From Calliopum simillimum (Eukaryota > Arthropoda > Insecta > Diptera > Lauxaniidae): a stretch of DNA of 64,000 nucleotides. How positions within the stretch are numbered: position 1 is the first letter of the stretch; each line of letters begins with the position of its first letter. The notes beneath the pieces were generated by a model. That model was given only the letters and a program-made list of their open reading frames with translations. It was not told the DNA's origin and did no database searches. A program made the translations under genes and the position numbers. Shown in pieces: positions 7,301-62,767 of this stretch. The stretch covers positions 119,683,309 to 119,747,308 of the forward strand of contig OX638368.1 of NCBI GenBank assembly GCA_951812925.1. Reading direction: 5' to 3'.

Positions 7301-10300
7301 CCGCGCAATTCTTTTTTCAGTAGTAGAGAAAACAAGGCATCTTACGAAAAAAGTGTATATGGCATAAAATTTTTAGAATCGTCTAACTGCCATACCTAAA
7401 TTGGAGCGTTAGCAATTTGTATGGCGCATACCGAAATTGCCAACGCTTAACGCTCAGCTATTCGAATTTCCAATTTTGACAAAGCGTTATGGAGTGAAGT
7501 TAGCTGCAGATAAGTAAACAATGAAACAACAATACGAATTTGACAAACAAATGACTTCGACGCAACGCTCTTTATTTCGGTATGGCGCTTGACGCTTTTG
7601 TTTAACGATAAATAACGCAACGCCTGACGCTCCAATTTAGGTATGGCAGTAAGGAATACGTGTGATTTTTTTGGAATTTTTTGGAAAGTATTTTTTTTTT
7701 TTTTACCAATTTTTTCAAAGTTGTATGTTTCAGAAAATTCTGAAAAAATTCACGCGTATTCGTTAGACAATTCTAAGTTTTTTATGCCATATATGTACAC
7801 ATTATTCGTAAGACTGGAAAATAATTACACGAAACACTTTATTGTTAATAACCCCCAATTTTTTTCTGGGCTATTATTTCAGAAACGGAGAAGTTGATTA
7901 AATTTTTATTTGTTTGAAAAGGGAATTTTCAATAATAAACTAAAAGTTTTGGTCCAAAAAAAAAAACTATTTTATTTCTTGGTCTATGCTAATAGTCCGG
8001 GAGCCGGCAATACTAAAAGTGCCGTCATCGCGGATTCTGAAATTTTTAATGAAAAATGGTAGTTTACACTAAGTGCTGGTTCACACGACAAACTAAATTG
8101 TCGGGCGATAGTACTATTTTTAGGCAAGCGGTGGAAAGCGGTCCCTCCGTTTGCCTACAAAAAGTACTATCGCCCGACAGTTTAGTTTGTCGTGTGAACC
8201 AGCTCTAAGACGAATAAGAAAAGCTTGGTCAGCGTGGTTATAGCCTGGCATAAATATTTTTAAATGATTTTTGAATTATTCAATTTTCGGAATGTTTTGC
8301 CGTCATAGCGGATTTTGATGAATCTTATATTAATCGATGCTAAATTTCATAACCATTCAGAAAGAATCCGGCCGACCAAATTTTTCTTGCCGAAAATGAC
8401 CGGCAGACCTATTTTAATGGTGCTGACCAAGCTTTTCTTATTCGTCTTAGTGTAAACTACCATTTTTCATTAAAAATTCAAGAATCCGCGATGACGGCAC
8501 TTTTAGTATTGCCGGCTCCTCGCCTATAAATATTTTAGAAAAAATGTTTTACAAAATCTTTACTAGTTGCTACAAAAAACATTTTTCTTGAAAGTTTTTT
8601 TTGCGTTTTTAGGTTTAATTTCATAGGTAGCTCACTTGAGAAATTTATGGCCTAGTCAGTAATATATTTGTACTAAACATACTTATAGGTACAAAACAAT
8701 GCTATGCAATAAATCTTAACTTGTTAGTCAAGCACTGATTTAATATACATACCATAATACAAGTATTTAGACCATAAACTTAATGACTTAGACTACTTGA
8801 ATTACACAATCAATACAAAATTCGCATAAACTTATGAATTTTTGACCGCCCCCACGTGTTTTGAAAAAATAGAAAAAAAAGAAAGTATGTAAATTTTTAA
8901 AAGCCGGCAAGCTACTTAGTATTAAGCTGGACACATTAGTGTTGACAACAAATTGGAACAACAAATATGTTTGTTTGTATATAAATGCAAACTTTAAATG
9001 CTATTTATTAGTTGACATTTGTTTTTTGATTTTGAAATGATTTGGATACATCATAGAATCGAAAAAATTTACATTATTCTTTTATTGCCACCGTGATTTT
9101 GAGTTATTTCGCTTTTGATGAAAGTAAATTTAAACTGACGCTAATCTCGTGAAATTAATTTTAATGTATTATTTATTTTTTAAAAATTTAACGCTTTAAA
9201 TTAATCAGCTGCTTTTATGGCCATTTTTTTGTGACACAAAATTTAATGTTACAACATTGGCGCACTCACCGAAAACCTTTTTTTGGTCATATAAAAAGAA
9301 AACACTTTTTGATTAAGTTATTTTTGTTATGAGGTAAACGCACAGCAACGTTTTGTCAGACAAACAGCTATCCAAAAATTTAACCTCAAAGTGTATTGCT
9401 CACCAAAACCATGATTGCGCTTGCAACATTGCACGTATTAAGGACATCAGTGCTTTCTTTATTATCAATTTGAAAAAGGTGGAATGAGAAGAAAATTTAA
9501 AAATATGTAGTTTTTGAATGTATTATAGTAGAAAATATCGAAATTCATATTTTTTTTCTAATTAATCATCATTCATAGATAACAATCCCATGTCAATTTT
9601 CAAAAAAAGTAAGATTTTCTTTCCAAATTTTACCAAAAAGGACGTTTTTTTTTTCAAACGGAGGGTAAAATGAGGATCATTATATTTAAAGAGAAATGTT
9701 TGTAAATTAATTTTTTCATTTTATTATTTTAACTAGATTTAAATTAACTAGATCAAATTAATGAAATTCATTGTCTTTAGATACCTTATTAGTTATTCTA
9801 ATTCCATTTGTCCTTCATCTTCGTCAACTGTTTGATCGCCGCTGGAAACATTACGAGTATATTTTGCTGTTGATAATATTTGGCGAAGCATATCCTGTTG
9901 CGATTTGATAAACGAATAGAATTCCAAGCACGACATATTCCAGTTCACTTTAGAGGTCAGAATGGCACTTAGTTTGCTGATTTGTAGCTGCGTTTTTTGT
10001 GTCGACCACATCTTATTCATTGTAGCAAAAACTTTTTCAGCGGAAGCTGTTGAGCCAGACAGGCATAAAATGTAATTAATTATTCTACCCTTTTCCTCGA
10101 ATACTTTGACCTATCGCTTCACTAAGGGAATCTTGCCATTATTCCACTGTTGAATTTTACTTTGCGTGCAATAGTTTTTGATGAAACCAAACTCCTTGTG
10201 TAATTGCACCGAATTGACAGATTTTTGCTAGTCCAAATGACGCATGGCCACATCGATATCTCTCCACATTGGAGCGGTCCACTTATCGATGAATTCACAA

Positions 10301-13300: not shown

Positions 13301-16300
13301 TAAGATCGAATAAAATCATAGTGAAAATAGCAATTTACATAAAATTAACGAGTTGACAAGGAAAATCAAACCAGAACAAACGGTGTACAATGCATAACCT
13401 GAAATTGCTTCAAATACTTAGAGATTGTTGACATGATTTCATGCAATACGAAAAGAGATCGTGTGAGCAATAAGCTTATTTGCTTTCACCATTGCGCAAA
13501 AGAATATTAAGAACGTTATTAGCAAACTAACGCATAACTCAGAACAAGTTCAATTTGATCTACATTATCCTCGTATCTTGACAAAATTTAATACTTAAAT
13601 TTTTTTCCCGATTTTTTGACTTTGGCGGCCATGTAAGTATGAAATAGGTCCTATTAACATACTCTTTTATAATTTTTTTTTTTATTTTGCGTTCCTTGCC
13701 AAATTGCCTTTAATTCGGTGGTACATTTGTCATACCCTACACCCAGGGTATATTCACTTTGTCTTTCCGTTTGTAACGCAGAGAAGGAGGCGTGGCAGGT
13801 ATGGAAAAGTCTATATAATCAGCGTCATCTCTTGAGTGGTGCGTGGAAATACATATTTTGGGAAAACTAAGCAATATAATTCAATGAAATTTGGTACTCT
13901 ACCCCCGTCGTCAAAGTTAGCTCGAGGGATTGAAAATGAACAAAATCGGTCAACGGAGAAGCCTGCCGCCCATACAAATAATATGTTCAAAACGCAACAT
14001 TAGGAGCATTATTTGCAAGCAAAATACACATAATTACTAGGGATAGCAAATACAAGCTCTGAGCAAAAACAAGGCGCATTCGGGATAGAAGGCGTGGCAC
14101 CTCACATATAAGCAAAAGCTGCAAAATGCTCTATTGAAAGCGTTTTTTGAGATAGTCCAACCAAATTTCATGTGGAGTGGAAAACCTGTATGATGTGCCG
14201 GCTGTACAGATTGCTCTTGAAAAGTATTTTTTCTGACCTCAAATTAAAGAATTAGTAAGACAAATGTGACACCAAATTAAAGGAAATTTAACGAGAACTC
14301 CAAAAAAATTTATAAAATGGTACTTTAATACGGCCTTTTTCATACGCAAATGTCCGCCAAAGTCTAGAAACATAAAAAAATTAAAATATCAACTATAAAG
14401 TTCCAAATCTTTGCAAAATCCTTTTAAACTCTAAACACCTCCCTTCTGCTTCGTAACTTTATGCAATACACCCTACATATAATACAAAACCATTTCATTC
14501 TGATGCACCATAAGTACTCGCAAATGGTTTCTATAAGATAACTAGGTCAGTGTTTATTTTGTGCGAAACCTGACCAGCCTTATAAATGTTACATTGTCTG
14601 ATTTTGTGTAATTTGTTAATTTTATGGCAATTTAACACTAAAAAAACCATAATGTAATAATGAAAAATATTCTAATCTAATTTATGAACAAACCATAAAA
14701 CCAAGCAATTAAATCTATTTTAAAACACTTTATTTGCAGTCATTGTTTAGACCATTGCCACCATTACGTTTTGGAAATTATGACATTCCATTTGAGGGAC
14801 CAGCAACTGTGACCAACAATGGTCACTCGAGTAAGTTATTATAAAATAATTAATGCAACAAAACATATACTTATTGAAAAAAACAGTTAGTATGACAATA
14901 CCCCCAACTCGAAGTAGTAGACAACCCTTTGTTACTGGTGGCATGATGCGCAGTATTTATGAAGCGCAAAGTTTGCATTTCCATTGGGGATCAAAAGGCG
15001 TAAAGGGATCAGAACACAAGATAAATGATCGTAAGTTTGATGTCGAAATGCATATTGTACATAAAAACGTGAAATATCCAACACAAGAGGAAGCGGTAGA
15101 GCATAAGGATGGCTTAGCTGTTTTGGGCATAATGTTCAGAATTGTTACGGTAAGTACGTTTCATAATTCCCTTGATTTGTATAACTTATTTTCAGAAAAC
15201 TTTTTTGTATTGAAGTAATGGAGAGTGGGTTTACCCGGAAGAACAAAGTACTTTTGAATGACAACATTTTTTAAGACTATAGATCGCGCATCATTTATTT
15301 TGTTAAAACATCGTTTCTTTTGAAACCCAAACAAAACACAACAAACCGAAAAGATGAGAGAACTTTTTCAATTTCATTCAATAAATCTAAAATGGAGTTG
15401 AGATTTCTCGACCGGTCATCTTTCGCCAGAACTCAAAACTTTTGTAATGAAATAAACTTCCAATAACATAAATTTTTTTTAACTGTTTGTTGGTTCGGAA
15501 AAAATTTGCATGAAATTTGAACTTTGGAACAGTTCTTTCTGAAGGTTAACTTTTTTTAATATGGCAATACTGCGCGAGCGATAAAAGTTGGTTCCGTGAT
15601 TTTCGAAAACCGAAAATTTTTTTAGAGTTCTGGTTCCGTTGGGAATAGTTCTGGAGTTCTTTCACAAAATTTGAAATAGTTCTGCGAAATTGCGCCAAAA
15701 ATCGGGGGTGTACCGTTTTTTGCCCAATGCCATGTTTTTCACTTAGAGGGGTTCTGATAACATTTTTGAGCTCACAAGAAAGAGTTCTGGAGTTCTTTAT
15801 GCTTTTTTTTTTTTGGTGAACAAAATTTTTTAGAAAAAAATGTTTTATAAAAAAGTTTCTTACAACAAAAAAGTTTTGATTACAGTTCTGGATAGTGCTC
15901 GAAGAGTTCTGAAGAAAATTCTAGTGACATTTTTTCGAAATATTTTTACTTTTCATTCAATTGAAAAATCAAAAAAAAAAAAAAAAAAATCGGTTTTTTT
16001 TTAAGTATCCGGAAATGATAATTTTACCGTTAAGGAGCTCTGATTGGAGTTTTAGGTTGCGCTCAAAGAGTTCTACAGAAAATATTAGGTAAAATTCTTG
16101 AACTTTTAATTTTAATCGAAATATTAGAAAAAATTTTCGGTTTTTTAGTAAGTATCCGAAAAGGACTTTTCGTAGAGGATTTCTGATTGGAGTTCCGGAT
16201 AGGGCACAAAGAGTTTTGAAGAAAATCCTATCGACATTTTTCCGAAACATTTGTTCTTTTCATTTTTATCGAAAAATCAAAAAAATTTTCGGTTCCGAAA

Positions 16301-17426: not shown

Positions 17427-17654
17427 TTGTTAATATATAATGCAAGCAAATGTTTGGAATCCTGAAGGATTAGAGTCATATTTTTGGCTGCATATGTATG
17501 AGTGTGTGCCTTTAAAAATTTATTCGTATGCTATTTATTTATTTATATAATTTATTTTTAAGATAAGTATTATTACAATTATATTATGACTAAAAATATA
17601 ATAAAACTAATTAAAACTAGTAAAATTTATTTCGATACGAAAAAAATAAGAAAA

Positions 17655-19670
17655 ATTTACGTGTCATTGAAAAATCTCTCTTTTACAAAGAATTTACTCT
17701 TGCTACTTTTATTGATATAGAAGGAGCTTTCAACAATATTTTTCCTAGTGCTATTATTACGGCACTAAGACGCATTGGCACAGAAACATGTGTTCTACTT
17801 ATGGTTAAAAACATGCTCCTGAACAGAACGATTTCGTCTGAATTAGGAGGAATATCACTTTCCAGATCAGTATCAATGGGTACACCACAGGGTGGTGTTA
17901 TATTCCCACTGCTTTGGGTTCTTGTTGTAGATGATTTGCTACGAATCATAAGACGACAGGGGGTCAAGGTGGTAGCTTATGCTGATGATATTCTTTTACT
18001 TGTGTCTGGTCGTGACTTAAATATTTTAAGTGACATAATGTCTCAAGCCCTTTAAAACATTACATTGTGGACCACAGAGTGTGGGTTGAGCATTAATGCT
18101 CAAAAAACGGATCTTGTGGTGTTCACGAATAAACATAAAATACCAAATTTTCGGCCTCCAACACTTAATAACGTTCGTTTGCTTCCTAAAGAAAGTGCCA
18201 AATATCTAGGCGTAATCCTCGATAGAAAATTGTCTTGGAAAATGAATATAGAAGAAAGGGCACGAAAAGCATGCATTGCATTTTACACGTGCAAAAGAAT
18301 GTTTAACAAATCTTGGGGCCTTAAGCCAAAAGTAGTTTTGTGGATGTATAAGGCCATCATTAGGCCAATTCTGACCTATGGAATTCTTGTCTGGTGGAAA
18401 GCCTTAAGCAAGCAAACCTTTTTGGCAATTTTATCAAAAGTTCAAAGAATGGCTGGTATAGGAGTTAGCGGAGCTGTTAACACTGTGCCTTCAGATGCTC
18501 TCAACGCTTTGCTTCATTTGGAGCCCCTTGATATTTACGCTAAAGGAGTTGCAGCAAAAGGTGCCATCAGGTTGAAGGATTTGGGCTTCTGGAAGTCGAA
18601 ACCTTATGGCCATGGCAGTATTTTTGCACAATTCCCTGGTTGTGATATTGACAATGGGACTGATTACATCAATCCCACTTTAACGTTCTCAACCAACTTT
18701 CAAGTGAAAATACCTGAAAGAAACGGTTGGACTCCGATTCTGAATTCCAAAGAAATATACACTGACGGCTCGAAAATGGAGTCTGGTGTAGGTGCTGCGG
18801 TCTTTTCCAAAGACTTGAATAGCAGCGAGTCTTTTGCTTTACCCCGTTACTGCAGTGTATTTCAAGCGGAAATTCTGACTGTGTGGAAGACATGCCAAAT
18901 TATTAAACCCAAAATTAATGAATGTTGTGACACATTTGTTATTTACGTTGATAGCCAGGCAGCCATTAGGGCCCTTGGGTCCAATATTACTAAGTCTCGT
19001 TTAGTCCTTAGCTGCAGGAAATCCCTATGTGAAGTAGGGCAGCTATGCAATCTTACAATATGTTGGGTTCCTGGACACAGTAATTTCGTTGGTAATGAAA
19101 ATGCTGATGAACTTGCTAGGAAAGGGTCTTTAACTGACATAATTTCTGAAACCTATATTATGAAACCACTTGCATTGATAAGAGCCAACATTGACTCTAA
19201 ATGTATTTTGTGGGCTAATTTTAGGTGGTCAAACTTAACTACATGTGTTACGTCGAGGGCGATATGGCCACTGTATGACGCTAACAGAACACGTAGAATT
19301 ATTTCATTAGATAGACAAAGTCTCAGAACTTTAATTGGTGTCATTACAGGGCACTATTTTATAGGCAGACACGCTTCTAGACTGGGCCTTACTGACGTAG
19401 GAGATCTTTGTAGAAGTTGTAAAGATTCTGACGTCGAAGAGTCCATTTTTCATTTCCTTTGCGAATGCCCAGCGTTGGCTAACCGACGTTACAAGGTGTT
19501 CGAAAGTCACTTCTTCGACTCTCTTGAAGGTATAGCTCATAAGAGTCCCAAATGGTTCACATAGGTTAACAACGAAGTTATATATCGGGGATACAATGGG
19601 CCTAATCGCGGCCTAAGTTATGATGGCAACAGCCATCTCCCGCGCTAACCTAACCTAACCTAACCTACAT
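17655..19670 (+). mobile_element. 5'-truncated LINE with RT and RNase H (Loa/I-like)
   Basis: One frame runs from about 17660 to the stop at 19562-19564, broken only by TAA at 18053-18055. The 5' part is a reverse transcriptase (FTLATFIDIEGAFNN, SMGTPQGGVIFPLLW, VAYADDILLL). The following 499-residue section has the RT thumb (AKYLGVILDRKLSWK) and then an RNase H domain: YTDGSKMESGVGAAVF, FQAEIL, YVDSQAAIRAL and WVPGHSNFVGNENADELA, giving the full D-E-D-D set. A Cys/His block near the end (CRSCKDSD...HFLCECPAL) is typical of these LINEs. It ends in CTAACCTAACCTAACC. RNase H and GTPQGG point to the Loa/I/R1 group. The endonuclease and ORF1 are missing. It lies about 50 bases past the poly(A) signal of gene A. 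Confidence 0.88.
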
Positions 19671-27800: not shown

Positions 27801-30800
27801 TTTCCAAACTAATTCTAGGTCGCTGAGTCCGAACAACGCATTTATTTATTTTTTTTTTTTTCGTAGGGGCCGTTCTCGAGATAATCGACAATTTCGATTT
27901 TTGAGATTATACCTCCATTTTCAAGAAAATATTTCGAAAATTATGCTAATGCATACGAATCTATCATTTTTAACAGGGGATATGTGACAAAACTTAAAAT
28001 TGTGGGAAATTAAAACAAAGCTTTATAAGTTTGGTAAGTCTTATTTTATGGCGATTTTGGTGATGAGGGTTAACATAGATTGATATCAAGCAGTAATCTG
28101 CGTATTTACAAAACAGACAGACCAACCAGCGCCAACGCCCTAACGGTTTGAAATTTTGCACATGTCCCCTTTTAAAAAGACTTTGAAATAAAAAGTTTAA
28201 CAAATGTCTTTATTTACTAAAACAGTCCATTAAATTTAAAAAATATTAACTAACGAGATAAAATACACATATGTAGAAGCATCAAAATGGCTATTCATCT
28301 CAGTCGCTTACCCGTTTTGGAGGGCTTTGTTGGCGTAGTATCGACGCTACTTTCGAAGTTTTTTAAAAAAATCATAATCGACCACGTAGTTGTGGAGAGA
28401 TTTCAAATCAAAAAGGTTCTTAGAATTAATAGGTTCCTAACCTACTTCTTAAGATTTTTTGCCCCGAAGAGGTGGAGGTGTAATTGCTTCAAGGGCGAAA
28501 GTAAGAGTTTCAGATCAATCATTTTTATATACAAAATGTTTATAACTTGATATTTTGAACGAAATTTTGTTTTAATTCCTTCTTTTTTTTTTTGGAATGA
28601 CCCATGCAATTTTTTTGCACTTTTTCGGACACCATGTTTTTTTGACTGAGCAAAAAATATAATTTTAAGAAAAAAAATATTCAATAAATTGATTAAAAAG
28701 TTAGCAATTCGAATGTCGATTAATTCATCATGAACTAAAAAATATACTTTTAATGAAAAATCATTGGTTAATCCGAAGTTCCTAAGAGATTCTTTATGAA
28801 AAACACCTCTTTCTAGACGAAATTTCAATTTGAACTTTTTGTATGGGATGATGAACCAATCCAGCAAAACGGTTAACTCCACTGATCTCCCCGTACCCGA
28901 ATCAGGTTAGAATGACCTATCTCCCGCCAGACCAAAAAAAAGGTCTCTAAAATTAGTACAGTGTAATCAATAAAAAAAACCCAATTTTTTTTATTTATTT
29001 TTTTTTTATTAGTGGTAGTAGACTTACAAATATTTATTTTCTACAAAAATATTTTATTTTTTTCCTAAAACTCTACATACATTAAGTTTTGTACTGTTAG
29101 TCTAAGATCCGGCAGTAAAAAAACGTATCGATCGAGTTTTTAGTTAAAACCTAATTTTTACATATATTTAGGAATGGGGGAATATATTTTTGCAGGGTTG
29201 CCTCTCAAAATGTGGCCGCAAGTATTATCAAATTGCGATAACTTATGAATCGTGAGTCTCACGGGGAAAAGTGTCAAAATCTTTTTTATGAAGAGTCATA
29301 TGCTCTATATGTAATTTTTATTATATGTAAAAAAAATTACCGCTTAGGAGTTATTTATTAAAAACCGATTTTTTTTTACGTTTATTTTTTATTGCGTAAA
29401 AAAAATTGGAGCATATGACTCTCCATAAAAAAGATCTGGGCACTTTTTCTCGTGCGACTCACGGTTCGAAAGTTATCGCAATTTGTTAATACTTGCGGCC
29501 ACATTTTGATAGGCAACCTGCCAAAAATATGTTCCCCCATCTATACTATTTATATAAAATTGCTTATATGAAAACTCTATGTAACGATTTGGTGCAAAAT
29601 ATACCGAACCGATTTTAATAATTTTTTTTTTAAAACGTTCTACTGGTAAAAAGGAACGGGAATGTATACTTATTTTTTTGGTTTTTATAATATAAACCTT
29701 TTTTTTTTTTAAGTATGAAGTTGTTGAAAAAAAAAATTCAATGCTTGCATAAAAATGATCGTTTTCATTTCAGTCGCTATAGCTTGCTGCGCCATGAGTT
29801 ATGTGCTGTTGTTGTCTTTTCCGTCTCTTTCATTTATTGTTTTTTTTTTATTCTTGATGTTGTATTGTTGATGAGAGCAAAAATGAGAGTGATTTCGTCA
29901 GTGATGCCATCTCAATATATTCAATATTTTTGGACTTTTAACTATGTTTTACATATTGGATGTTTTGTTTTTAGACTTTCACCGATTTCTTCAATGTGTT
30001 TCAATATTTTTCAAAACTTTTGGGCTTTTACCGATATATAGCATGTTTTTCGATTTCTTTTTTGTAATTTTACCGATATTTTGGATGTTTTTCAATAAAC
30101 TTACACTTTTGCCGATTTCTTCAATGTGTTTCAATATTTTTCAAAACTTTCGAACTTTTACCGATATATAGGATGTTTTTCGACTTTTTTGGAATTTTTT
30201 GCGATATTTTGGGTGTTTTTCTATAAACTTGGACTTTACCAATTTCTTAGTTGTGTTTCAATATTTTCCGAAACTTTTGGACCCTTTTCGATACATTGAA
30301 TATTTTTCGATATACAATATGTATTTGAACTTTCACCGATTTCTTCAATGTTTTCCAATAATTTTGGGCTTTTACCGATATGTAGGATGTTTTTCGACAT
30401 TTTTGAACCTTTACCGATATTTTAAATGTTTTTCAATATTTTTCGAAACTTTTGGACTTTTACCTATATTTTGGATGTTTTCTTTATATTTGGACTTTTA
30501 CCTATACTTTAGATGTTCTTCTATACTTTGTGACTTTTGCCGATATTTTAAATGTTTTTCGATACATTTGGGCTTTTACCGATTTCTTCGGTGTATTTCG
30601 ATACTTTTGGACATTTACCGATATTTTGGACATTTTTCCATAAACTTGGACTCTTACCGATTTCTTCAATGTATATTTTATAATATTTGTAAATCCTTTT
30701 GTTAATTTGGATATTTTATTTTTAACTCTCTCATGTTAATATTAGAAGTAATTAAACCGGCAGACGGCTTTTTATTTAAGCCATGCTTGTAATACTTTAT

Positions 30801-34439: not shown

Positions 34440-34893
34440 CTAGTTGTCTGGGGGCGACTTCGTTCGCCCGTTCCCAATACCCCTTAAAAAAAGTATGTAC
34501 CCAATCTCATCCATCCCTCTACAAAAGTCTCATAATGTTGTTTTTTATATCGCAGTCTTGAAAATTTTTCCATTGGATGTTATTTGTCCAGGTGCCAAAA
34601 CTTTTTAATATCCGGGGCAAAGCCGAGTTGACTTCAAATGAGAGTTTGCCTTGGAATCTCACCAAATGACATGTCTTTAAAAGTAAAAAAGCATCAAAAT
34701 CGAGTAACTGATTTACGAACTTTGGGACTTTCGAAGAACCTGGACGAAGCCGAGGGTATTTCGAACTTAAACGTATCTTAAAACATTGCCATGCAAAATA
34801 TCTATGAATGAAAGAAAAAATAATGCAAATCGGACAAACGGTTCTCGAGTTATGATGACACAGACAGACAGACAGACGATGTATTTTATATAG
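34440..34893 (-). mobile_element. Helitron remnant, reverse orientation
   Basis: Read on the - strand, the 3' end has a hairpin (GGGCGA...TCGCCC, about 34453-34470) shortly before CTAG (34440-34443) and then T. The 5' end has CTATATAAAATACATCG, repeated CTGT units, and AACTCGAGAACCGTTTGTCC. These are standard insect Helitron termini. The mariner at 34896 is inserted at its 5' tip. No coding region; the long open frame across it is fortuitous. Confidence 0.75.
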
Positions 34894-34895
34894 TA

Positions 34896-35914
34896 CGTAG
34901 GGCACTAAGAAGAAGTCATTGGGTGCCAAATCAGGATTGTACGGAGGATGAGTCATCAATTCGATGTTTTTACTGCTCAAAAATTCACCTGTTTCACGAG
35001 ATGTGTGAGAGCTCTCATTGCCATGATGGAGAATGATTCGTCTTCGGGGGTTGGTTTTACGAATTTCTCCGAAGACTTTCTGTTCCTCAGAATTGACCGT
35101 CCTACGTTGCTGAAGCGGAACAGTGGCATCATGACTCATTCGGAAACAGGCGGCCATTTGCTTCGCTGTGCTTCTACAACGAACAACTTTTGTTGGATTT
35201 AGCTCGTCTTGGAATACCCACACGGTCAATTGCTGTTTTGTTTCCGGCTCATACGCATATATCTATGATTCGTCACCTGTCACAATCTTATACACGTCTT
35301 TTGAAGCACCACGGTGGAAGTTTTTAATCATTTCCTTACACCAAACGATGCGAGCCTTTTTTTGAGCGATTGATAAATTATTGGGTTTCCAACGAGAACA
35401 AACGTTTTTTACAACTAAGTGTTCATGCATAATCGAATGAAGTGGAACTAATGTGCAAGGATGCCTCCATCTCACAATATGCCACATGACGATCTTTCAT
35501 TATCAGTTCATGCACTGCATCGATATTTTGTGGCGCAACAACCTTGACCTTCATGGAATACGTCAGTGACCGAACTCCGACCACAATTGAATTCACTATA
35601 CCAACCATATACTGTGGTTTTTGATTTTGCTTAATCCCCATACAAAGAACTGAGTTCATCGACACATTCTTGTTGAAATAATCCACGTCGAAAGTTGTGA
35701 AAAATAATCCAACGAAAACCTTTTATTGAAATTTCCATTTTTTGGCCAAATTGATTTTCTTAAGCCACTGGAAACAAAACAAATAGCACTTGTACATAAA
35801 AACGTTGTGAGAACGTTTATGCTAAAAAATGTCAAACTTTATTGGTGTTGCCAAATTTAGGCTATTGAGATTAGTGTTGCCAGTTCCCGATATACATATA
35901 AGTAGTGCCCCTCG
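34896..35914 (-). mobile_element. Internally deleted mariner
   Basis: The right end (reverse) CGAGGGGCACTACTTATATG and the left end CGTAGGGCACTAAGAAGAAG form a shortened inverted repeat, each inside TA. The - strand transposase reads FRRGLFQQECVDELSSLYGD, then NLSIAQKKARIVWCKEM, IVTGDESWIYAYEPETKQQ and VWVFQDELNPTKVVRCRSTA. Further on come ILHHGNESSHTS and HPPYNPDLAPNDFF. The second catalytic Asp (HHDN) is Gly, there are several frameshifts and stops, and the C-terminal tail is deleted, so it is dead. Confidence 0.88.
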
Positions 35915-39900: not shown

Positions 39901-42900
39901 AAAAGTTTTAATCAGTTGATATTAATGAGTGAAAATCAGTCACTTTATTCGTTCGTCATACATGATAAGGCTATTAAAAAAACGTTTAAAGATAATAATC
40001 TCATATGCAAGTTCTCGTTAAATTGCAACCTAAATATTTCCGAATTTACTGTCAGGATTATGTGCAGAAAGCTAAAAGCTTAGATACATTACAATAGTAA
40101 AAGATGGCCAAGCTGAAAAAAAATGTTACGCCCTTAAGAGAATTTCTATTATCGCTATACGAGTATATTATGTGAGGCTTTCCCCACATGCTGCAAGTAT
40201 TCGTCAACAAATGGTTAAGGCGAATACTAAAGGTTTGATGGCCTCGCACTATATCAAATGCCGAGCTACATCAAAAATGCAATCAGAGGGCTATAGCAAT
40301 CGAGGTCAAGCTGCGCAAATGGAGATGGATTGGTTACACTCTCCGGAAATCACACAGCGAAGTTTGTCGCCAGGCTCTTGAGTGGAATCCACAAGGTAGT
40401 AGAGCACGTGGTAGACCCAAAACCAACTGGAAGAGGCCCTGGAAAAGGAAATCCAAGAATCGGGAAAGACATGGCAAGAGATTTAAGTCATCGCAAGGGA
40501 TCGTGACAAATGGAGAGATTTCATATTGGCCCCATGCTCCTCCTAGGAGTTAAAGGAGAATACATACTAGTGATGAGCAAAATTAGTCTTGGTCTTGCGT
40601 CTTGTTCTTGATCTTGCTAATTTTGCGAGACCAAGACCAAGATGCTGATATTTTTGCAAGACCAAGACCAATACTGCTATGGTGCAGGTGTTAGGTGGTG
40701 GCGGGAGTAAATAAATTCAAATGTGTGCATATGAACACTGTATCAAGACTATTAGGCAATCTGTTTGTGAAAATAGCAAATACAAATAGCATTTTTTGGG
40801 GGTTTCGGGGGTGGTAAGAATTTTAAAATTCATGAGCTAAATCCAAAAATGCACTCTAGCAGTATATTAATGCAATAAAAACAAGTCAAAAATATTGCCA
40901 AACTTTAACCTCAATTGTCTCAAAACTATAATTTTTGAACTATAAAATTCAAAACGCCATAACTTCGCCAATTTACGACATTTTTGAGCGATTGTTTCTG
41001 TGTTCTCTTCAGAATTTTATCTTTTATTCAATGGTATATAAAACGCAAGTTTGACCTCTCGCAAGATAAGGTCCCTTTTCTAGCGACGCATTACATATAT
41101 TGTAAAGCGAGTGAGGGATTCCATGAGAATTGAAACAGATTAAATAACGACAAACGTTTGGACCGCTTAGTATTTATGCATTTAATTTAGCTCTGTTGTA
41201 TGCATTTTTAAATTATGCATTTTCCCAGAAGTATTTTAAATTAACCTTTTTTTTTTTGCATACTTCACATTCATTACGAATTTGCGTACCATAGCATTTT
41301 CACATAACTTATAAAACTTTAAGCCAACAATTTAAACTGAGCAAATAGATTAAGTACCCACGTGCGTGTCTCAACTCTTTTAACGTTAAAGTTGGTTATC
41401 TTGCGATCATATCATGAGTAGTACAAAATATATAATTTTTGCAGATGCAAATGTTAGTTTTTTTGGCTAATAAGCAACTTAAAACGAGCGATTTCAATGC
41501 ATTGTGTTGCTGAACGGGCTGTTGTCACCATCTGTTTTTCATCAATCAGACTTCCGACAGGGCTACTTATTCTCACCATTTCACTTCCCTCTACCTAACG
41601 CAGATGGATGAGATTTGGTACACATATAGCATAAAGGGCATCGGAACAAATAACATTCACTGGAAAAATAAACGGGGTATGCTAGGAACAAACATTTTCA
41701 AAAAATTAAAAAATACATAAAAAAGAATAAGCATCGACTTATTTTTATATCTAAAATATTAACGACTTTTACTTTTAACAATAAAAAGAAGTTGTAAAAA
41801 ACGCAACATCAACAATTGATGAATGACATTGAAACACGCAAAGAAAACTGCAAAAAAATATTAGTAAACTTTTAAGTAGTCATCTTTATTAGATTTTACA
41901 ACACTGAAAAACAATTAAAGTTTTTAATTTGGTTTATCAGATGCTGACAAGCAATTCGTATCGCTTATCTCTTATGCTGCAGCATAAAATATAAAACTAT
42001 TTTATTAATTTAAGCTTTTTCTTATATAATAAACAATTGCAAGCACACATTACATTACTTTAATTTTGTAAAGATACAATCTGATATGCATTAATAAGTC
42101 ATATATATTTTTATGTAAATTGGGAAACCACTATGCCAGATGATAACTTCCTTTTCCTTTCTATTTCGCCATAACTTACATATACAATTAGTAAAGCATA
42201 ATCACTATAAGATACATTTTGTATTGAAAAATTTAAAGCTTAAAGATGATAATGTCCAGATTGACAATGGTAAAGTGCAAGCCTATATACATATGTATAT
42301 TGAACCTACCATAGACTGTATAAAAAAAGTTTTTTCTTTATACTTTTTGTCTAATTTGCGATATGTTTTACATGACAAATAGGACTACCCTTGAGGTATA
42401 TGGAAAACAATTCAAAATTTTTACTTAAAAAACGGTACTTCAAATAAAAATATTTCGCTTATTTTTTAAGTACCTTAAAGGTTCTATGTGTCCTATAAAA
42501 CTGAGTTTTTCGAGATAATTAAATGATTATGCAGCCACTTCCAGCTTCTAAACATTTTATACCAGCCAGGCCAGTAGCGGATCCAGCATTGTCAAGAGGG
42601 GGGCCGATTGACTACATTTCTAGATAATAACAGAATGTTTTAAAAATCTTTACATATAATTTAGGTTAGAGAGAGGGAATCCGCCACTGAGCCAGGCTTA
42701 CAACTTCTTTGCGTTAACAACGAGAAGACAAAGTAAATATACTATTGGTGTATTTAATAAAAACTGTCTAGGAGCAAATTTTCCCCATAATGTCGCCGGT
42801 GCTTACGAAGAAAATCTTCCAACCGAAAGTTGCGGCGAAGAAAATCTTTTTTTTTCTGAAATTGCGGCGAAAAAAATCTTTTTTGTAATATGCGGACAAG

Positions 42901-48075: not shown

Positions 48076-48975
48076 GAAAATCCTGGTTTTTTGAAAGATT
48101 TTCAGTTTAAGATTTGTATGGTGGAAAAAATGTCACTTTCATATTGTCACGTATCGATTCAGATTATGAACAAAACAAAGAAGAAGTACAGAAGATATAT
48201 GAATCAAACAATATATATTATAAAATAACATTATTGCATAAGATTCTAAGATTAATCGCACTTAAAAATTCAGACTTGTTTCGCTGAATTCTGACTTTCT
48301 TTGAATAGGCAAGAAAACTTCTTCTATTTCTGTCACGTTCGTTCTGCGTCTTTGTTTTTGTGTGTATCTTAGAACCAGGACTTCGCCTGCTATTAAAGTT
48401 GGCACTAATTATAAAGCTACCATATAAAGTAAAAACTAAAATAAAAATGTTTTACTTCCACTTTGTTTGTGTACGACGGTCACGTTCGTCACCTGGGAAA
48501 TGCCCATATACAGTTTTTCGGTCTAATTTTGAAAAACAATCAGCTTGTATTTCATTTGGAAGAGACTTCGAAACTATGAAATAGCTGGAATAAGATGCCA
48601 TGAACCGTTTCATTAGGCATTTTCACGAATCTTCTTTTTGATTGAGGATAGGTGTGTAGATATCTCGCCGGAATCGTGGAATTTTCAAAAATGTTTTTTT
48701 TTTTTCTTTTTAATCAGTCTAATCTTCATATTTATTGATAGATATATGCAAAATAAAAACTGATATCCACTGCCGTCATCTCTCTTGTCCATTATATTTA
48801 CTCAGAACGTGTTCCAACTATTTCTAGTATTTGTTTGAAATTCGGTTTAATTACACTGTTCGACAATTTCGAACATTTTTTAAAACACATTACTGCCATA
48901 CCTAAATTGGAGCGTCAGCGTTATTTTACTGTCAAAAATTTCTCATGCACACACAATTTGTATGGCGCATACCAA

Positions 48976-50276
48976 TAGAGGCATCACCTTGCTCTCAGTA
49001 CCATCAAAAGTACTGACGAAAGTGCTTCTGAGCAGGATAAGCGAAAAACTTGATTCGGCCATTCGAAAACAGCAAGCAGGATTCCGGCGAAACTGATCAT
49101 GCGTGGATCAAATCAACACGCTCAGAATAATTGTCGAACAATCATGCGAGTGGCGTGCTGCACTTCAACTTGTCTTCGTTGACTATGGCACTGCCTTCGA
49201 CAGTGTCTCCCGAGAAAACATCTGGGCGTCACTGCAACGAAGAGGTATTGCCGCAAAGGCCATAAACTTAGTACGTGCACAATATGAAGGCTTTAAATGC
49301 AGTGTGTTACACAACGGGTTGTTGTCACCGACATTCACCACTAATTCAGGCGTACGGCAGGGGTGTTTACTATCACCATCTCTCTTCCTTATCGTTCTTG
49401 ACGATATTCTAGATAAAGCTCTTAATAAGGCCAAAAGGGGTATCCAATGGAACTTTACTGAACATCTAGAAGACCTCGACTACGCCGACGACATCTGCCT
49501 CTTATCGTCCAAACATTCAGATATGCAAAACAAAATTGAAGACCTTGTCTTGGAATCACAAAAGGCCGGCCTGAAAATCAACGTATCCAAGACTAAAAGC
49601 ATGAAGCTAAACGCAAGCAATGACAGCACGTTTAGAGCTGGCAGTCATGACATCGAAAACGTCGATAGCTTCACGTATTTAGGCAGCATTATCTCCATGG
49701 ATGGTGGAGCAAAAGAGGATATCAACTCAAGAATAGCAAAAGCAAAAGGCGCGTTTGCTCAACTGAACAAAATATGGTCTTCATCCGTTATATCCACCAA
49801 AACGAGAGTGCGCATTTTTGATTCGAATGTGAAATCGGTTTTGTTATATGGGTGCGAAACGTGGCTTGTTACTGAACAACTAACGAACAAGCTGCAAGTA
49901 TTCGTCAACAAATGCTTAAGGCGAATACTAAAGGTTTGGTGGCCTCGCACTATATCAAATGCCGAGCTACATCAAAAATGCAAACAGAAGGCTATAGCAA
50001 ACGAGATCAAGCTGCGCAAATGGGGATGGATTGGTCACACTCTCCGGAAACCACACAGCGAAGTTTGTCGTCAGGCTCTTGAGTGGAATCCACAAGGCAG
50101 TAGAGGACGTGGTAGACCCAAAACCAACTGGAAAAGGTCGTTGGAAAAGGAAATCCAAGAATCGGGAAAATCGTGGCAAGAGATCAAAGTCATCGCAAGG
50201 GATCGTGACAAATGGAGGGATTTCATATTGGCCCTTTGCTCCTCCTAGGAGTTAAAGGAGAATACATACATACATA
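48976..50276 (+). mobile_element. RTE-like LINE with reverse transcriptase domain, one stop
   Basis: The 5' end is truncated inside the polymerase. The frame reads RGITLLSVPSKVLTKVL, KQQAGFRRN, then TGA (49097-49099, where related elements keep a sense codon), then 381 residues. These include VFVDYGTAFDSVSRENIW, SGVRQGCLLSP and the catalytic DYADDICLLS, ending in the basic [17 protein letters not shown] and LALCSS. The 3' end is AGGAGTTAAAGGAGAA and CATA repeats. CATACCAA flanks both sides (48968-48975, 50277-50284). Best-preserved copy of the family in this window; the endonuclease is missing. Confidence 0.9.
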
Positions 50277-50428
50277 CATACCAACACTCAACGCTGAGCT
50301 ATTCGAATTTCCAATTTTAACAAAGCGTTATGGACTGAAGTTAGCTGCAGAAAAGTAAAAAAAGAAACAACAATATGATTTTGACAAACAAATGACTTCA
50401 ACGCAACGCTCTTTATTTCGGTATGGCG

Positions 50429-51701
50429 CACGGTGCTGTCACTCCATACAACGGAACGGCATTTCCACAGTTTTGGTTCGATTTCAATAAGATTTACCAT
50501 ACGGATATATTTTTTTATGTTGTTTTCAGAAATGCAACTATTTTTCAAATGCAATGTATAGAAAAAGAGATATTCGAATAAATAAAACCACGAAAGTTAA
50601 CTGGAAAAAATGTTTGTGAGTGCTTTTAGGCTGTAAAAAACCATATTAAAAATTTAATAGTTCAAAGTGTTTTTGACATATAAAAGTATGCTGTAAAAAA
50701 AATCAAATTTAAAAAAATTCAAAAGCATTTGAAAAAATTTTTGTGGTGTAAATTTTATAAAATCATTAGAGTTATTCACGATCTAGAGTAACGAGCTGAG
50801 TAACAGGGTAAAAGTGCACTCAGTTACTCTGAATAGTGAGCATACTCAATACTTTGCACGTATATTTGCTTTTTGTTTCTCAAAATAATCTTAGCTGACA
50901 ACAAAAAAAAAAATTTTTAAATGAATATTTTTCTCCCATTCAAATTTTTATTTTTGATGAACGAAAATTGCCTCTCAATCATAAACAAGTTCAAACGTTT
51001 CTATAAAAATAGAAATAGTAAAAAAAAGGCAAAAGTGTAAGATTATTTTACACTAGAAAATAGCTTGACTAAAAGGGTAAAAGAGTAACAGAGTAACTTA
51101 CGTATATTTTGTTGTTGTGGTTGTGCACAGTTACCCTGTTACTCTGTTACTCAGGACGTTACTCTAGATCGTGAATACCTCTATTGATTTTTACGTAAAT
51201 ACGGGATCTTCAGATAAATATTTAAAGTAAACGGGGTTGAGAATTTTTCCTATGTTAAAATATGGAATTTGTACTATCTGTACGTTTTAGAACAATGCCC
51301 GCAAGTCCCGTCTTTTTTTTTCCTGCTCTAAAGAAAATTAGCATTTTCCGGTTTTTAATATTTGAAAATTTTTTTTATATCTTTTAAAATAACTTTAATT
51401 TGGCTGAAAAAATTTGCATACAAAAAATACTAAAAATAAATGGGTATGTAGGCTTTTGTATGCATTTTATTTTATAACAATTGCTTTTGAGGTTTAGGTG
51501 CAGCAATTATTTTTAAAAAGCTCTGCGATTAGAAAATTCGAAAAAAAGTTAGACTTTAACAAGCTGTAACACTTACAAATCACATTAGTTTTCAATAATT
51601 TTCAGGGGATTTCTTAATTGGACTATTTGCTGTAGAATGGCATAAAATTTTAAATTTGAACAAAAATTTTTTACGCAAATGCCTTCTATCGCAGCACTGT
51701 G
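50429..51701. mobile_element. Transib-like non-autonomous element with RSS-like ends
   Basis: The termini are CACGGTGCTG (left) and CACAGTGCTG (right, reversed). TGGCG lies outside both ends (50424-50428, 51702-51706), and the sister MITE at 7387-7649 has one TGGCG at this place with no insert. CACWRTG-like heptamers with a 5-bp GC-rich duplication are the hallmarks of Transib, the family related to RAG1. On the left, 12 bases after the heptamer, comes ACAACGGAA; on the right, 23 bases after, comes AAAAATTTT. The 1273-bp interior is AT-rich without transposase and contains a MITE at 50769-51181. Confidence 0.65.
50769..51181. mobile_element. TA-flanked MITE, innermost level of the nest
   Basis: The ends GAGTTATTCACGATCTAGAG (left) and GAGGTATTCACGATCTAGAG (right, reversed) continue as TAACG and GAGTAACAG words. 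TA lies outside both ends. 413 bases, non-coding; Tc1/mariner type by its duplication. Confidence 0.8.
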
Positions 51702-52995
51702 TGGCGCTTGGCGCTTTTGTGTAACGTTAAATAACGCAACGCCTGACGCTCCAATTTAGGTATGGCAGTTAGAAAATTCAAAAAATTCTTAAAGTAGACG
51801 TTAAAAAAAAAATACCCATTTCTCGTGGTTTTTCTCCAGCACGTCACATTTTTTTTTAATCGATTTTTGAAGTTCACTGTATATGAAAAAACCAAAAATA
51901 CCGCATTCTTGTGTTAAATCGATGAATTTAACTATATGATCCTTACATCTGAGGTGTATCATATGTTGAGCAAACTTATGCAGGATATTGCGGGGAATAT
52001 TTTTGTATAAAATTTTAACCCTGTTTAACCACCTTATATGGGTAATTTTTGCCCTTTTCTTAAAAAGGTACAAAAATTACACCCAAAACAGAGAAATATT
52101 GAGTCATCAGTATGTACTAAGAATCTTTAAGAATTTTTCGTCTCTGGTAACTCTTAGTGAAATTTTTTGTAGGATATTTTTGCAAAATTCTTTAACCCAT
52201 TGTGGCTCAATTTTAAAAAAAGGGGTCAAAAAGACCCATAAAAACAGGATATAATAGGTTAATGTGTTCTGGGAAAATGATCCTTGTGTGATTTCGTTAT
52301 GATCTTGTGAGTACGAGTTTTGTCCAAAATGTAGTTTTAGAGTTTTACAGTGGGGTGAAATTTGGAAAATATTTATTGTTAGACCTGCTAACTGATTTTA
52401 ACGATATTTTTGATTTCGGGATAAAGTTGCTTTTTTTTTGCTCAGCATTTAGTAGTGAAATTGTATAGCAAATATTTCTGTAGTACATACTGACTCAATA
52501 TTCTCCTGTTTTAGGTGTCATTTTTGTACCTTTTTAAGAAAAGGACAAAAATTACCCACATGTGGGGGTTGTACAGGGTTAAAATTTTCTACACAAATAT
52601 TCCCCGCAATATCCTGCATTAGTTTGCTGAACACATAATACACCTCAAACGTAAGGATCATATAGTTAAATTCATCGATTTAACACAAGAATGCGGTATT
52701 TTTGTTTTTTTCATGTACAGTGGATAAAAAAGCTTCAAAAATCGATTAAAAAAAATGTGACGTGCTGGGGTATCTTTTTTTAACGTCTACTTTCAGAACT
52801 TTTGGATTTTCTCATGTGTTTTTTTTGTGTCGAACAGTGTTATCTCTCAGTACAGCGCTTTAACGATTTGAGATGTCACGCTCTTTCTTATTGTATTGTG
52901 TGGGCAGTGGGTGTTTCCTTTAACCGATTTAGCTCATTTTCAATCCATCTAGCTAGCTTTGACGATATAGCGAGAGTACAAAATTTTATCAAATT

Positions 52996-55152: not shown

Positions 55153-58100
55153 TTAAAGTTTTGGTGTCGGCAGAATTGTTGTGTCCCTAAAAAGAAAGTA
55201 AACATGATAAATATGATTTAAAGCCTATAAACTACTGAAAGCTTAACCAAGAAATGAATTGATAAAATGATATATGAAAGAGGACAGCATGCAGGAAATT
55301 CGAAGTTAAAGTGGAAATGTATTGGTAGGATGATAGCTGAAATAGAATAAAATGCATATAAAATGATAACATAATATAAATAAACCGAAACCATGATAAC
55401 AATAATGAAATAAACTACTTTTAAAGCGATAATCATAAAGTCTAATATATATTACACAGACAGATTTGATTTCTAAGGTAGACCTTTAATAACTACACGG
55501 AGGGCTTTAACCCCTTGAGACCGAAGCCTAGACCCTTGTAGATATCGAAAAATTAACTTCAGATTCAGTTTTCTTGTGCTTAAATTAAGAAAAAAAGGTA
55601 GGTCCGGAAAATCCTCGTATAGCTAGAAAGGGTGGATTCATATAACACAGTGCAACAAAAAAAATCCAAACAACTTTTTGAATGCTGTTCCTGAAAGCAC
55701 ATAATGTTACTAGTAAGACCCTATCTGTGTTTCGCTTGGTTGGCTCCAGGTCGAATTTTATAGTACTACAAAAATTGCTTCAAAACTGCTTTTTCAAAGT
55801 TGTCACGGCTCTAAGTCATAAACCGTTTGAGATTTTGTTTTCATATATTCAACGAAGTAGTAGATATGTATGTATGTATGTATTCTCCTTTAACTCCTAG
55901 GAGGAGCATAGGGCCAATATGAAATCTCTCCATTTGTCACGTTCCTTTGCGATGACTTTGATCTCTTGCCACGATTTTCCCGATTCTTGAATTTCCTTTT
56001 CCAACGACCTTTTCCAGTTGGATATAGGCTAAAGAAAAGAAAATGTTTCAAGAACTAACCCGAAAAAATTGGGTTTTTGGCCTCAAAATCACAATAATGC
56101 CGAAAAATTGTGCCATTTTTGGTCATAGCTTAAAAACCGTTCCGTATTTTGCCAAAAAGTTAAAACAGAATTGTAGCCAAGACTATACTGAACAACTCTC
56201 TAGAGCATGTCAATAGCATTCGAGTAATCCTTGATACTAATTTTAGTTAAAATAGTGATGTATCAAAAAATGCTTGGGGTCCTATATGACCCCATCGGTC
56301 TCAAGGGGTTAAACAAGGAGCAGCAGTGGGAGCTGGAGTTTTTATTCTCATCTATAATATAAGACTAAAGTTTAAGGGTTTCAGCGTTTCAAAATCTTTG
56401 AACCTAGCGCAGTCAGCGTAGAGTTTTAGCTCTTCTACGACAACCACAATATTTCAATATATTGCAGATTTCTCAGAACTACAACAATCACAAAAAATGT
56501 TTTTTTTTTGGCTAATCTTCAGTAAAAAAAAAAACAACAAAAACAATTTTTTGTGATTGTTGTAGTTCCGTCCTTTTCGAGCGAGCGTCCTTTTCGAATG
56601 TGAACCGTTAAACGTATCACTTTTGATACAGCTCTATAATGTAACATTTCAGAAAGCACTTTACTATAAGGCTAACTTAAAATGGACTAATTCAAATACT
56701 GGTAAAATAATAATAAGTGTTGATTTTTTTAAGTCCAATTATTAACAAAATGCGCCAGGTCGGCTCAAAATCGGGGACTGACTTTATGAGAAGGTAGTTA
56801 TCTCGCAAAACTGTTTTAGGAACCATCACTGTCTTATAGATTACCATGCTCACAACAAATGTCGCTGGTGTGATGACGACGCAGAGTAGAACTTGGAACA
56901 TCTGCTGTGTCATTGTCTGGCGCATGGTAGATTTAGATTTAGAACTCTTGGACAAATGTTTTTTAATAATCTGAGGTTGGTCTTAGGCCACTCAAAGATT
57001 TTGCAATGGCTTCTAAAGACTTTACTCTCAAGTCTGGTATGGGCTAAAAACCATAAAACTATTTACAAATACGTGACTTAACGTTTGGGATAATGTGGTA
57101 TTACTATGGACCTTTTTGGTCTATGAGTGGCTATTAAGCCGTTACTTAAACCTAACATAATCCTGACCACATGTAGGTTTCAAAGACTAAGTCAAAAATG
57201 TTTGTAATTTAACGTACAAACAATGAATTTTGTTTTGATGGCCAAATATAAACAAAAGATTAATTGAAAATCTTTCATACATATACGAGTAAATGGAGGG
57301 AATATCACGGTGATTTTCACGGCCTATTTGTTTTTAAATTTTTTGTTCGTTTCTTTTTAGTAGGAAGTTTTTATTTTAGAAACTCTTTTTACAATTCGTC
57401 TGTTGTTTTCGGCTTAAATATAACAAGCATATTTCATAATTAATGTAATATTAATATAAGAGCGACTACAGCAATTATTTATCTAGCTATTCAGCTAAAT
57501 AAGGATTTTTTTTTTTTTTTTTTTTTTTTTTTGTTGTAGCATGTTTTAATTTAATTTGAAAGAAAGGAATTAATGAGGAGAAAAATAATATAATATTGTT
57601 TAGTGAGTGAAAATAAATCTAAATTTAACTAAACAAATTATTCATATATGATACGATTTAATAATAAAACTATAATATGAAAATGAATGAAAATTAAATA
57701 AATAAAGAATTAAAAAAGAATATATAACATAATTGTGAAGGTTAAAGAACTCAGTAAAATTATTTTCATCTAAAAAAAATCTCAAGGTTCAAGCTACCTA
57801 GCTAACAAAATCGAAGAAATTTTTACAAAATTTGAGTCAATTTTCCATTTTTCAAAGACAAATGCTTTAATTTTTATTAATGCAACGTAATGTGGAAATC
57901 GCAATATAAAGAAAAACACAACATAATGAAAATATAACAAAATCCCTACATAAAACCAATCCCAACTAATCTGTAAAACGTATTATGTATGATTTTAGCA
58001 CAAGGTAGAAAGATCTATTTTATGTACTTCTGCAGATATTGGCTGCAAAAACAAAAACCTTAGAAATAAATAACATCCAAAATTCAAAACAATGAGTAAC

Positions 58101-61920: not shown

Positions 61921-62767
61921 TCGCCCAATGGTTAAAATTTGACCACAAATGTATTAAATAATTTTGGTGCTATGTAGACAGTTTTAGTACTTTTTTGCTA
62001 TTCGGTACAAAATAGAAAACCTCATTTATCATCCCTGGTACACTGACAAATGTGAAACGAAAAGAAAACAAAAAACATGAAACCAGTGTCAGTCAGCTTT
62101 CTGTGTCTCTCTTTGTGCTGTATCCTCTTTTCAGCTCTGTGTGACCGCGAATTTTGTCGTTCTTAATATTGAAAAATTTGTATTTAATTTTACCTGGCTT
62201 AATGGCAAAATATTAAAATAATTTTAACTTTGTGCACATTAACACACAAATATCTTTCTAATGGTGTATAATTCAAAGTCGTGCTTTATTTCTAACAAAG
62301 TAAAAAAGGTAGGACAACTTTTTGTCTTGCGTATTAATATATAGATTTAAGATAATTGTCTATACTTTTGGACTTTTACAGATGTTTTAAATATGAATTT
62401 TATAAATTAAATAAAATAAATATTGGGGCATCTGTTTTTGAACATTATTTTAGAAAAATAGTTTCCCGTATTAGCATTTTTTAGAGCTTTCTTGCTTAAA
62501 AAACGTATTTTTAGTATTCATTTTAGTGGAAAATTAAATCAAGCAATTTGTTGCTTTTTGTTTCTGCAAACAACCCGCCGTGAAAAATTAAACAAAACAT
62601 AAATTCAAAAAACTGGAAAATTAATAGCTAAAGGTCAAGCTCAACAAATTTTATCGAAAATTTCCAACGTAGCCGCATTGTTTGCTGGATTACTGAGCAA
62701 AAACCAGCAAACGCAAGCTATTTATTTCAAGTGATACTTAAAATAAAACATATTTATTAATAATATA

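What the first reader, a model, noticed from the sequence alone, without database searches (positions are those of the whole stretch)
50429..51701. Transib-like element with RAG-RSS-like ends and an exact empty site in the same window
The termini carry CACGGTG and CACAGTG heptamers; the second is the V(D)J RSS consensus heptamer. A 5-bp TGGCG duplication flanks the element. The related MITE at 7387-7649 has a single TGGCG at the same position, so the borders are not guesswork. The left heptamer is followed after 12 bases by ACAACGGAA and the right one after 23 bases by AAAAATTTT, an asymmetric 12/23-like layout. Transib transposons are the accepted relatives of RAG1, and heptamers plus 5-bp duplications are their signature. 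The nonamer resemblance is my inference and could be chance in A-rich DNA.
Basis: partly seen in the sequence, partly recalled or inferred. Interest (0 to 1): 0.75.

Follow-up and report, generated by a model that had tools for sequence, protein, structure and literature searches.

The report
Defective Transib-type jumping gene
A 1.3-kb piece of mobile DNA with no recognisable gene jumped into another transposon; its ends best fit the Transib family, the accepted relatives of the antibody-gene shuffling enzyme RAG1, but its resemblance to antibody-gene signals stops at the outermost bases, so it looks ordinary.

Summary
A 1,273-bp insert (50429-51701) interrupts a small MITE with TWA duplications; the MITE copy at 7387-7649 gives the exact empty site, with one TGGCG (7583-7587) against two around the insert. 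The ends are CACGGTGCTG and CACAGTGCTG, an inverted repeat of 10 bp with one mismatch. Of 26 border readings that fit the filled-minus-empty length, only the 5-bp TGGCG reading gives a 9/10 inverted repeat. CACNRTG ends, a 5-bp duplication and a G/C-rich target best fit a non-autonomous Transib-superfamily element. This rests on one insertion: no transposase was found, no second copy was seen, and the search of the window's own genome did not complete (16 tries).

The RAG 12/23 part does not hold. Both nonamers match the consensus at 4 of 9 bases; random window positions do as well or better 22% of the time, positions near the element's ends 31%. Against Transib: the target does not fit the Drosophila motif CCANTGG, and the inverted repeat is short. 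The insert contains a palindromic repeat (about 50759-51191), so this is a layered transposon nest. Verdict: a probable new member of a known kind, of low interest.

The parts
50424..50428 (.). left target-site duplication TGGCG
   Evidence: direct reading and alignment to the empty site
50429..51701 (.). non-autonomous Transib-type insert, 1,273 bp, 28.5% G+C, no recognisable coding sequence
50429..50438 (+). left terminal inverted repeat CACGGTGCTG (heptamer CACGGTG)
51692..51701 (-). right terminal inverted repeat CACAGTGCTG read inward (heptamer CACAGTG)
51702..51706 (.). right target-site duplication TGGCG
50759..51191 (.). palindromic repeat inside the insert, probably a nested element; 56-nt arms 89% complementary; exact borders unresolved (no clear duplication; AT, ATT or TA readings possible)
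48893..51768 (+). interrupted host MITE copy (CTGCC...GGCAG) with TTA at 48890-48892 and 51769-51771; holds a non-LTR insert (about 48974-50280) and the Transib-type insert
   Evidence: borders read directly from the sequence
7387..7649 (+). related MITE copy with TAA at 7384-7386 and 7650-7652; carries the empty site, TGGCG at 7583-7587

Best explanation
A non-autonomous DNA transposon of the Transib superfamily. A Transib transposase made elsewhere in the genome bound the CACRGTGCTG ends, cut the element out, and joined it to a staggered 5-bp cut at TGGCG in a pre-existing MITE; gap repair made the 5-bp duplication. A palindromic repeat probably inserted into it. Shown: the insertion, the 5-bp duplication, the empty site, the ends, the lack of a long reading frame. 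Inferred: the superfamily, the acting transposase, cut-and-paste with flank hairpins, and that the inner palindrome is a separate, nested element.
For: Exact empty site and 5-bp TGGCG duplication. CAC-first ends of the CACNRTG type, 1 case in the window and 0 of 50 shuffles. In Drosophila melanogaster, Transib hopper has 5-bp duplications at 532 of 533 sites and transib2 at 7 of 7, while the other TIR families of that table have 8 (hobo, P-element), 7 (1360) or 2 (pogo, S-element) (PMC3276498, passages); Hztransib has 5 bp, GCTCG (PMC1852546, passages). Duplications of ProtoRAG, Transib and RAG are said to be biased to G/C (PMC8289069, passages); TGGCG has 4 of 5 G/C, as do 5.2% of window 5-mers (4 or more G/C) and 21 of 258 5-mers in the MITE.
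Against: One insertion only. The inverted repeat is just 10 bp and beyond it the ends are unlike, whereas Hztransib has long inverted repeats (PMC1852546) and the Transib MITEs of one survey have 13-27 bp (PMC7764229, passages). The target ATGGCGC does not fit the Drosophila Transib motif CCANTGG, nor does TGGCG fit the CNNNG rule of that survey, though Hztransib's own GCTCG does not fit it either. No Pfam match in 10 of the 26 ORFs of 30 aa or more that overlap the insert, and no RAG1/Transib-type match in the 20 ORFs of 106 aa or more of the window; I did not check which Pfam model, if any, detects Transib, so these blanks are weak. No clear other copy in the window. No collection known to hold insect genomes could be searched.
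Confidence: 0.68

Rival explanations
1. A non-autonomous element of another cut-and-paste superfamily (CACTA/Chapaev-type, P, hAT or an unnamed one) whose true duplication is not 5 bp, with TGGCG partly a chance repeat, or of an unnamed 5-bp family.
For: A 3-bp GGC reading on the same axis gives an 8/10 inverted repeat; the direct repeat is 6 bp, so the border does not follow from repeat length alone. The inverted repeat is shorter than the published Transib ones. Ends beginning with CA are common among superfamilies (recalled).
Against: The 3-bp reading puts unlike bases (G and A) at the very tips, while the 5-bp reading starts both ends with CAC. Duplications of 7 or 8 bp are excluded: the perfect repeat is 6 bp and the empty site fixes the total length. 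The 6-bp reading has a 0/10 inverted repeat.
Confidence: 0.21
2. A non-autonomous derivative of a RAG-like (RAG1L-RAG2L) transposon rather than Transib.
For: CAC-first ends and 5-bp duplications; non-autonomous RAGL elements, often with duplications, are reported in an oyster and several deuterostomes (PMC7204232, passages).
Against: Protostome RAGL ends follow CACTWMCAAACKTYKBB with AAA at positions 8-10; here positions 8-10 are CTG at both ends. Outside deuterostomes the passages seen name molluscs, Nemertea and Cnidaria; the host here looks like an insect (inference, not tested).
Confidence: 0.04
3. A 12/23 asymmetric element: its ends work as a 12-RSS and a 23-RSS with nonamers.
Against: Nonamers 4/9 on each side; 22% of random pairs and 31% of pairs near the element's ends score as well; better matches lie at other spacers. 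Most Transib families are said to have symmetric ends with little or no nonamer similarity (PMC8289069, passages).
Confidence: 0.04
4. No insertion: the 7387-7649 copy lost DNA by a deletion between two TGGCG repeats.
For: Deletion between short direct repeats would also leave a single TGGCG.
Against: It would need the ancestral MITE to have held a CAC-ended inverted-repeat element exactly between 5-bp repeats, which is the insertion itself.
Confidence: 0.03

Closest known systems
Transib superfamily (Drosophila hopper/transib2; Helicoverpa Hztransib)
   Same: 5-bp duplications, CAC-first heptamer-like ends and little or no nonamer, G/C-biased duplication
   Different: no transposase here; target does not fit CCANTGG; inverted repeat only 10 bp against long ones in Hztransib
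Transib-type MITEs of insects (iMITEdb; Helicoverpa armigera survey)
   Same: non-autonomous, inverted repeats; known in insects and the smallest superfamily by bases covered (0.19 Mb in 98 genomes) in PMC5199201 (passages), which elsewhere calls Academ the least abundant
   Different: 1,273 bp, about 840 bp without the inner palindrome, against a ~482-bp mean and an 800-bp upper limit in iMITEdb and 83-386 bp with 13-27-bp inverted repeats in Helicoverpa (PMC7764229, passages)
V(D)J recombination signal sequences
   Same: heptamers CACAGTG (consensus) and CACGGTG; the first nine bases of both ends, CACAGTGCT and CACGGTGCT, rank 1st and 4th (1.150 and 0.499) of the ten CT-spacer heptamers tabulated from a 12-RSS recombination assay (PMC9723617, section 17 read)
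   Different: no nonamer above chance, so no 12/23 signal
ProtoRAG / RAG-like transposons
   Same: CAC-first ends, 5-bp duplications
   Different: no A-rich block at positions 8-10; no RAG1L/RAG2L genes recognised

Membership tests
Transib superfamily | 5-bp target-site duplication | tested here: met
   TGGCG, with empty site; one insertion only
Transib superfamily | ends beginning with CAC, RSS-heptamer-like | tested here: met
   CACGGTG and CACAGTG
Transib superfamily | RAG1-core-like DDE transposase, in the element or in an autonomous partner with the same ends | tested here: inconclusive
   none recognised in the ORFs scanned, with Pfam's coverage of Transib not checked; the own-genome search did not complete (16 calls)
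Transib superfamily | G/C-biased target duplication | tested here: met
   TGGCG, 4 of 5 G/C; 5.2% of window 5-mers are as G/C-rich; weak, one site
Transib (Drosophila hopper/transib2) | target motif CCANTGG | tested here: not met
   target ATGGCGC matches 1 of 6 specified bases on either strand (compared by hand with the motif); known from one species, not a feature of the whole superfamily
Transib-type MITEs (Helicoverpa survey) | CNNNG duplication and 13-27-bp inverted repeats | tested here: not met
   TGGCG and 10 bp against PMC7764229 Table 2; Hztransib's GCTCG does not fit CNNNG either
12/23 RSS pair | nonamer ACAAAAACC at 12 and 23 bases | tested here: not met
   4/9 at both; 22% of random pairs score as well
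RAG-like transposon | AAA at positions 8-10 of the ends | tested here: not met
   CTG at both ends against the consensus in PMC7204232
hAT / P | 7- to 8-bp duplication | tested here: not met
   perfect repeat 6 bp at most; length fixed by the empty site; lengths of hobo, P-element and 1360

The most novel reading that the evidence does not exclude
The element belongs to a Transib family whose two ends are asymmetric in the 12/23 manner, a living analogue of the split-receptor transposon proposed as the origin of V(D)J recombination.
Probability: 0.03. Interest if true: 0.6.

Novelty: new member of a known kind. Interest (0 to 1): 0.2.

Why it matters
It would add one well-bordered non-autonomous member to a sparsely represented group of insect transposons, with heptamers close to the RSS consensus and a neat empty site. 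It does not bear on the origin of the 12/23 rule, since the nonamer resemblance is at chance level. Its practical use is as a clean pair of ends for finding the autonomous partner in the host genome. Whether this very family is already in a repeat library was not tested; none was on hand.

Tried and rejected
Other copies: none with the ends in the window. The 10-mer scan found three sites within one mismatch of CACRGTGCTG: the two ends themselves and one at 62141 on the minus strand, which has no partner in that list. A permissive BLAST of the insert gave weak matches (about 60-77% identity, apart from two 22-base matches at 91%, one of them within the inner palindrome) in the 30 best rows shown; the best outside the insert is at 30036-30179 (E 6e-7, within the inner palindrome's part of the insert). 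None of those rows reaches either end, and I take them as AT-rich background. The nhmmer step printed nothing and is not used. End patterns in viral contigs: 0 and 0 stretches. End pattern in genome contigs: 23 bacterial stretches; in 23 of 23 the match at the left end covers only 18-19 bases, and the 4 further matches to other parts of the element are 13-20 bases long, so all are taken as chance.

Coding: 10 of the 26 ORFs of 30 aa or more that overlap the insert gave no Pfam match at E 1. The 20 window ORFs of 106 aa or more (of 54 of 90 aa or more) gave matches to reverse transcriptase, RNase H, carbonic anhydrase and DUF6451, sub-cut-off DDE_3 and HTH_32 (E up to 0.001), and two sub-cut-off hits taken as chance (E up to 0.1). 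Shorter ORFs outside the insert were not scanned, so a decayed transposase fragment could be missed. Rfam: 0 matches at gathering score in the window.

Considered and rejected: 12/23 layout; RAG-like transposon (consensus); 7- or 8-bp duplication families. The Kapitonov and Jurka 2005 paper is not held, so its end alignments and target motif could not be checked. A remembered Transib target motif, CGNCG, was among the terms of one search (at least two of six terms asked for); it occurs in none of the 10 papers listed and is not used as evidence.

Full report
What is there. The stretch 50429-51701 is 1,273 bp, 28.5% G+C, flanked by TGGCG on both sides. It lies inside a MITE copy that begins CTGCC at 48893 and ends GGCAG at 51768, with TTA on both sides; the related copy at 7387-7649 has TAA on both sides (read directly). 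TWA is the duplication given for PIF/Harbinger MITEs in PMC7764229 (passages). The filled MITE without the insert aligns to the second copy without a gap at the junction, TGGCG being present once; identity is 137 of 148 bases on the left and 65 of 68 on the right.

Borders. The perfect direct repeat is 6 bp, TGGCGC, so repeat length alone does not settle the border. One search listed the 26 readings compatible with a filled-minus-empty length of 1,278 bp: only the 5-bp reading gives a 9/10 inverted repeat, CACGGTGCTG against CACAGTGCTG. Two others on the same axis give 8/10 (duplications GGC and G) with unlike tip bases in the GGC reading; the 6-bp reading gives 0/10. Beyond 10 bp the two ends are not alike.

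Chance. Loose criteria mean little here: a 5-bp repeat with an inverted 10-mer at 9/10 or better occurs 101 times in the window against a mean of 53 in 20 shuffles, and those 20 shuffles held 4 CAC-ended cases. With CACNRTG-type ends at both sides the window has 1 case and 50 shuffles have 0. The empty site is the strong evidence.

The RSS claim. The heptamers are real, and both begin with CAC. The first nine bases of each end, CACAGTGCT and CACGGTGCT, are 1st and 4th of the ten CT-spacer heptamers tabulated from a 12-RSS recombination assay, at 1.150 and 0.499 (PMC9723617, section 17 read). This says that RAG can use such heptamers in that assay, not that they are used so here. The nonamers fail: 4 of 9 on each side; 24% of all window 9-mers score 4 or more; for the pair, allowing both orientations, 22% of random pairs of window positions and 31% of pairs within 300 bases of the two ends score as well. 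The right A-run fits better at spacers 20-22 and the left end at 8. PMC8289069 (passages) says that most Transib families have symmetric ends, such as those of Hztransib, with heptamer similarity but little or none to the nonamer, which is what is seen here.

Which superfamily. Transib is the best fit by elimination and by positive features: 5-bp duplications at 532 of 533 hopper and 7 of 7 transib2 sites in Drosophila, against 8 for hobo and P-element, 7 for 1360 and 2 for pogo and S-element (PMC3276498, passages); 5 bp for Hztransib (PMC1852546, passages); CAC-first ends; a G/C-rich duplication. Some LTR families in the same Drosophila tables also have 5 bp (Idefix, at one site; 3S18), but the insert begins CA and ends TG, not the TG...CA of LTR elements (recalled). 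Against Transib: the target does not fit the Drosophila motif CCANTGG nor the CNNNG rule of one MITE survey, whose inverted repeats are 13-27 bp; Hztransib's are called long; there is one insertion only, and no transposase was seen. A RAG-like transposon is less likely because its protostome ends carry AAA at positions 8-10 (PMC7204232, passages), where this element has CTG.

Mechanism. A Transib transposase supplied in trans binds the two ends, cuts at CAC (leaving hairpins on the flanks, as reported for Hztransib in PMC6941560, passages), and joins the 3' ends to target strands 5 bp apart; repair duplicates TGGCG. Shown: the product. Inferred: the enzyme and the steps. The insert is unlikely to move by itself: its longest stop-to-stop frame lying wholly inside is 42 aa, and the 10 frames scanned of 26 gave no Pfam match.

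Nest. The MITE holds a non-LTR retrotransposon (about 48974-50280; reverse transcriptase ORF 49097-50248) and the Transib-type insert, which contains a palindromic repeat (about 50759-51191). About 840 bp of the insert lie outside that repeat. The repeat shows no clear duplication of its own, so that it is a separate, later insertion is inference. The host is probably an insect; that too is my inference from the kinds of repeats and was not tested.

Limits. The collections that did answer hold viral and prokaryote contigs and gave nothing relevant. The superfamily therefore remains an inference from one insertion.

Noticed in passing
window 7387-7649 and 48893-51768: MITE family with CTGCCATACCTAAATTGGAGCG ends and TAA/TTA duplications, PIF/Harbinger-like; the second copy is broken by two inserts
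   Followed up: partly
window 7428-7583: Inside the MITE a perfect 10-bp inverted repeat (ATACCGAAAT) is flanked by GGCGC on both sides, as if a 156-bp element with a 5-bp duplication were nested there; a 3-bp GCG reading with CATACC ends is equally possible
   Followed up: no
window 50759-51191: Palindromic repeat inside the insert, with GTTACTCTGTTACTC-type inner inverted motifs and no clear duplication
   Followed up: partly
window 48974-50280, also 6831-7104, 40301-40567, 55865-56021: Non-LTR retrotransposon with a CATA microsatellite tail and further partial copies
   Followed up: no
window 51836-52123 and 52476-52768: Inverted repeat of about 290 bp, 88.6% identical, just right of the MITE
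   Followed up: no
window 14850-15215: Carbonic anhydrase coding piece, probably an exon of a host gene (PF00194)
   Followed up: no
window 17624-19564: Reverse transcriptase and RNase H reading frames, probably of a second non-LTR element
   Followed up: no
window 34522-35262 and 2801-3301, minus strand: Weak DDE_3 and HTH_32 matches below Pfam cut-offs, probably decayed mariner-type transposases (my reading)
   Followed up: no
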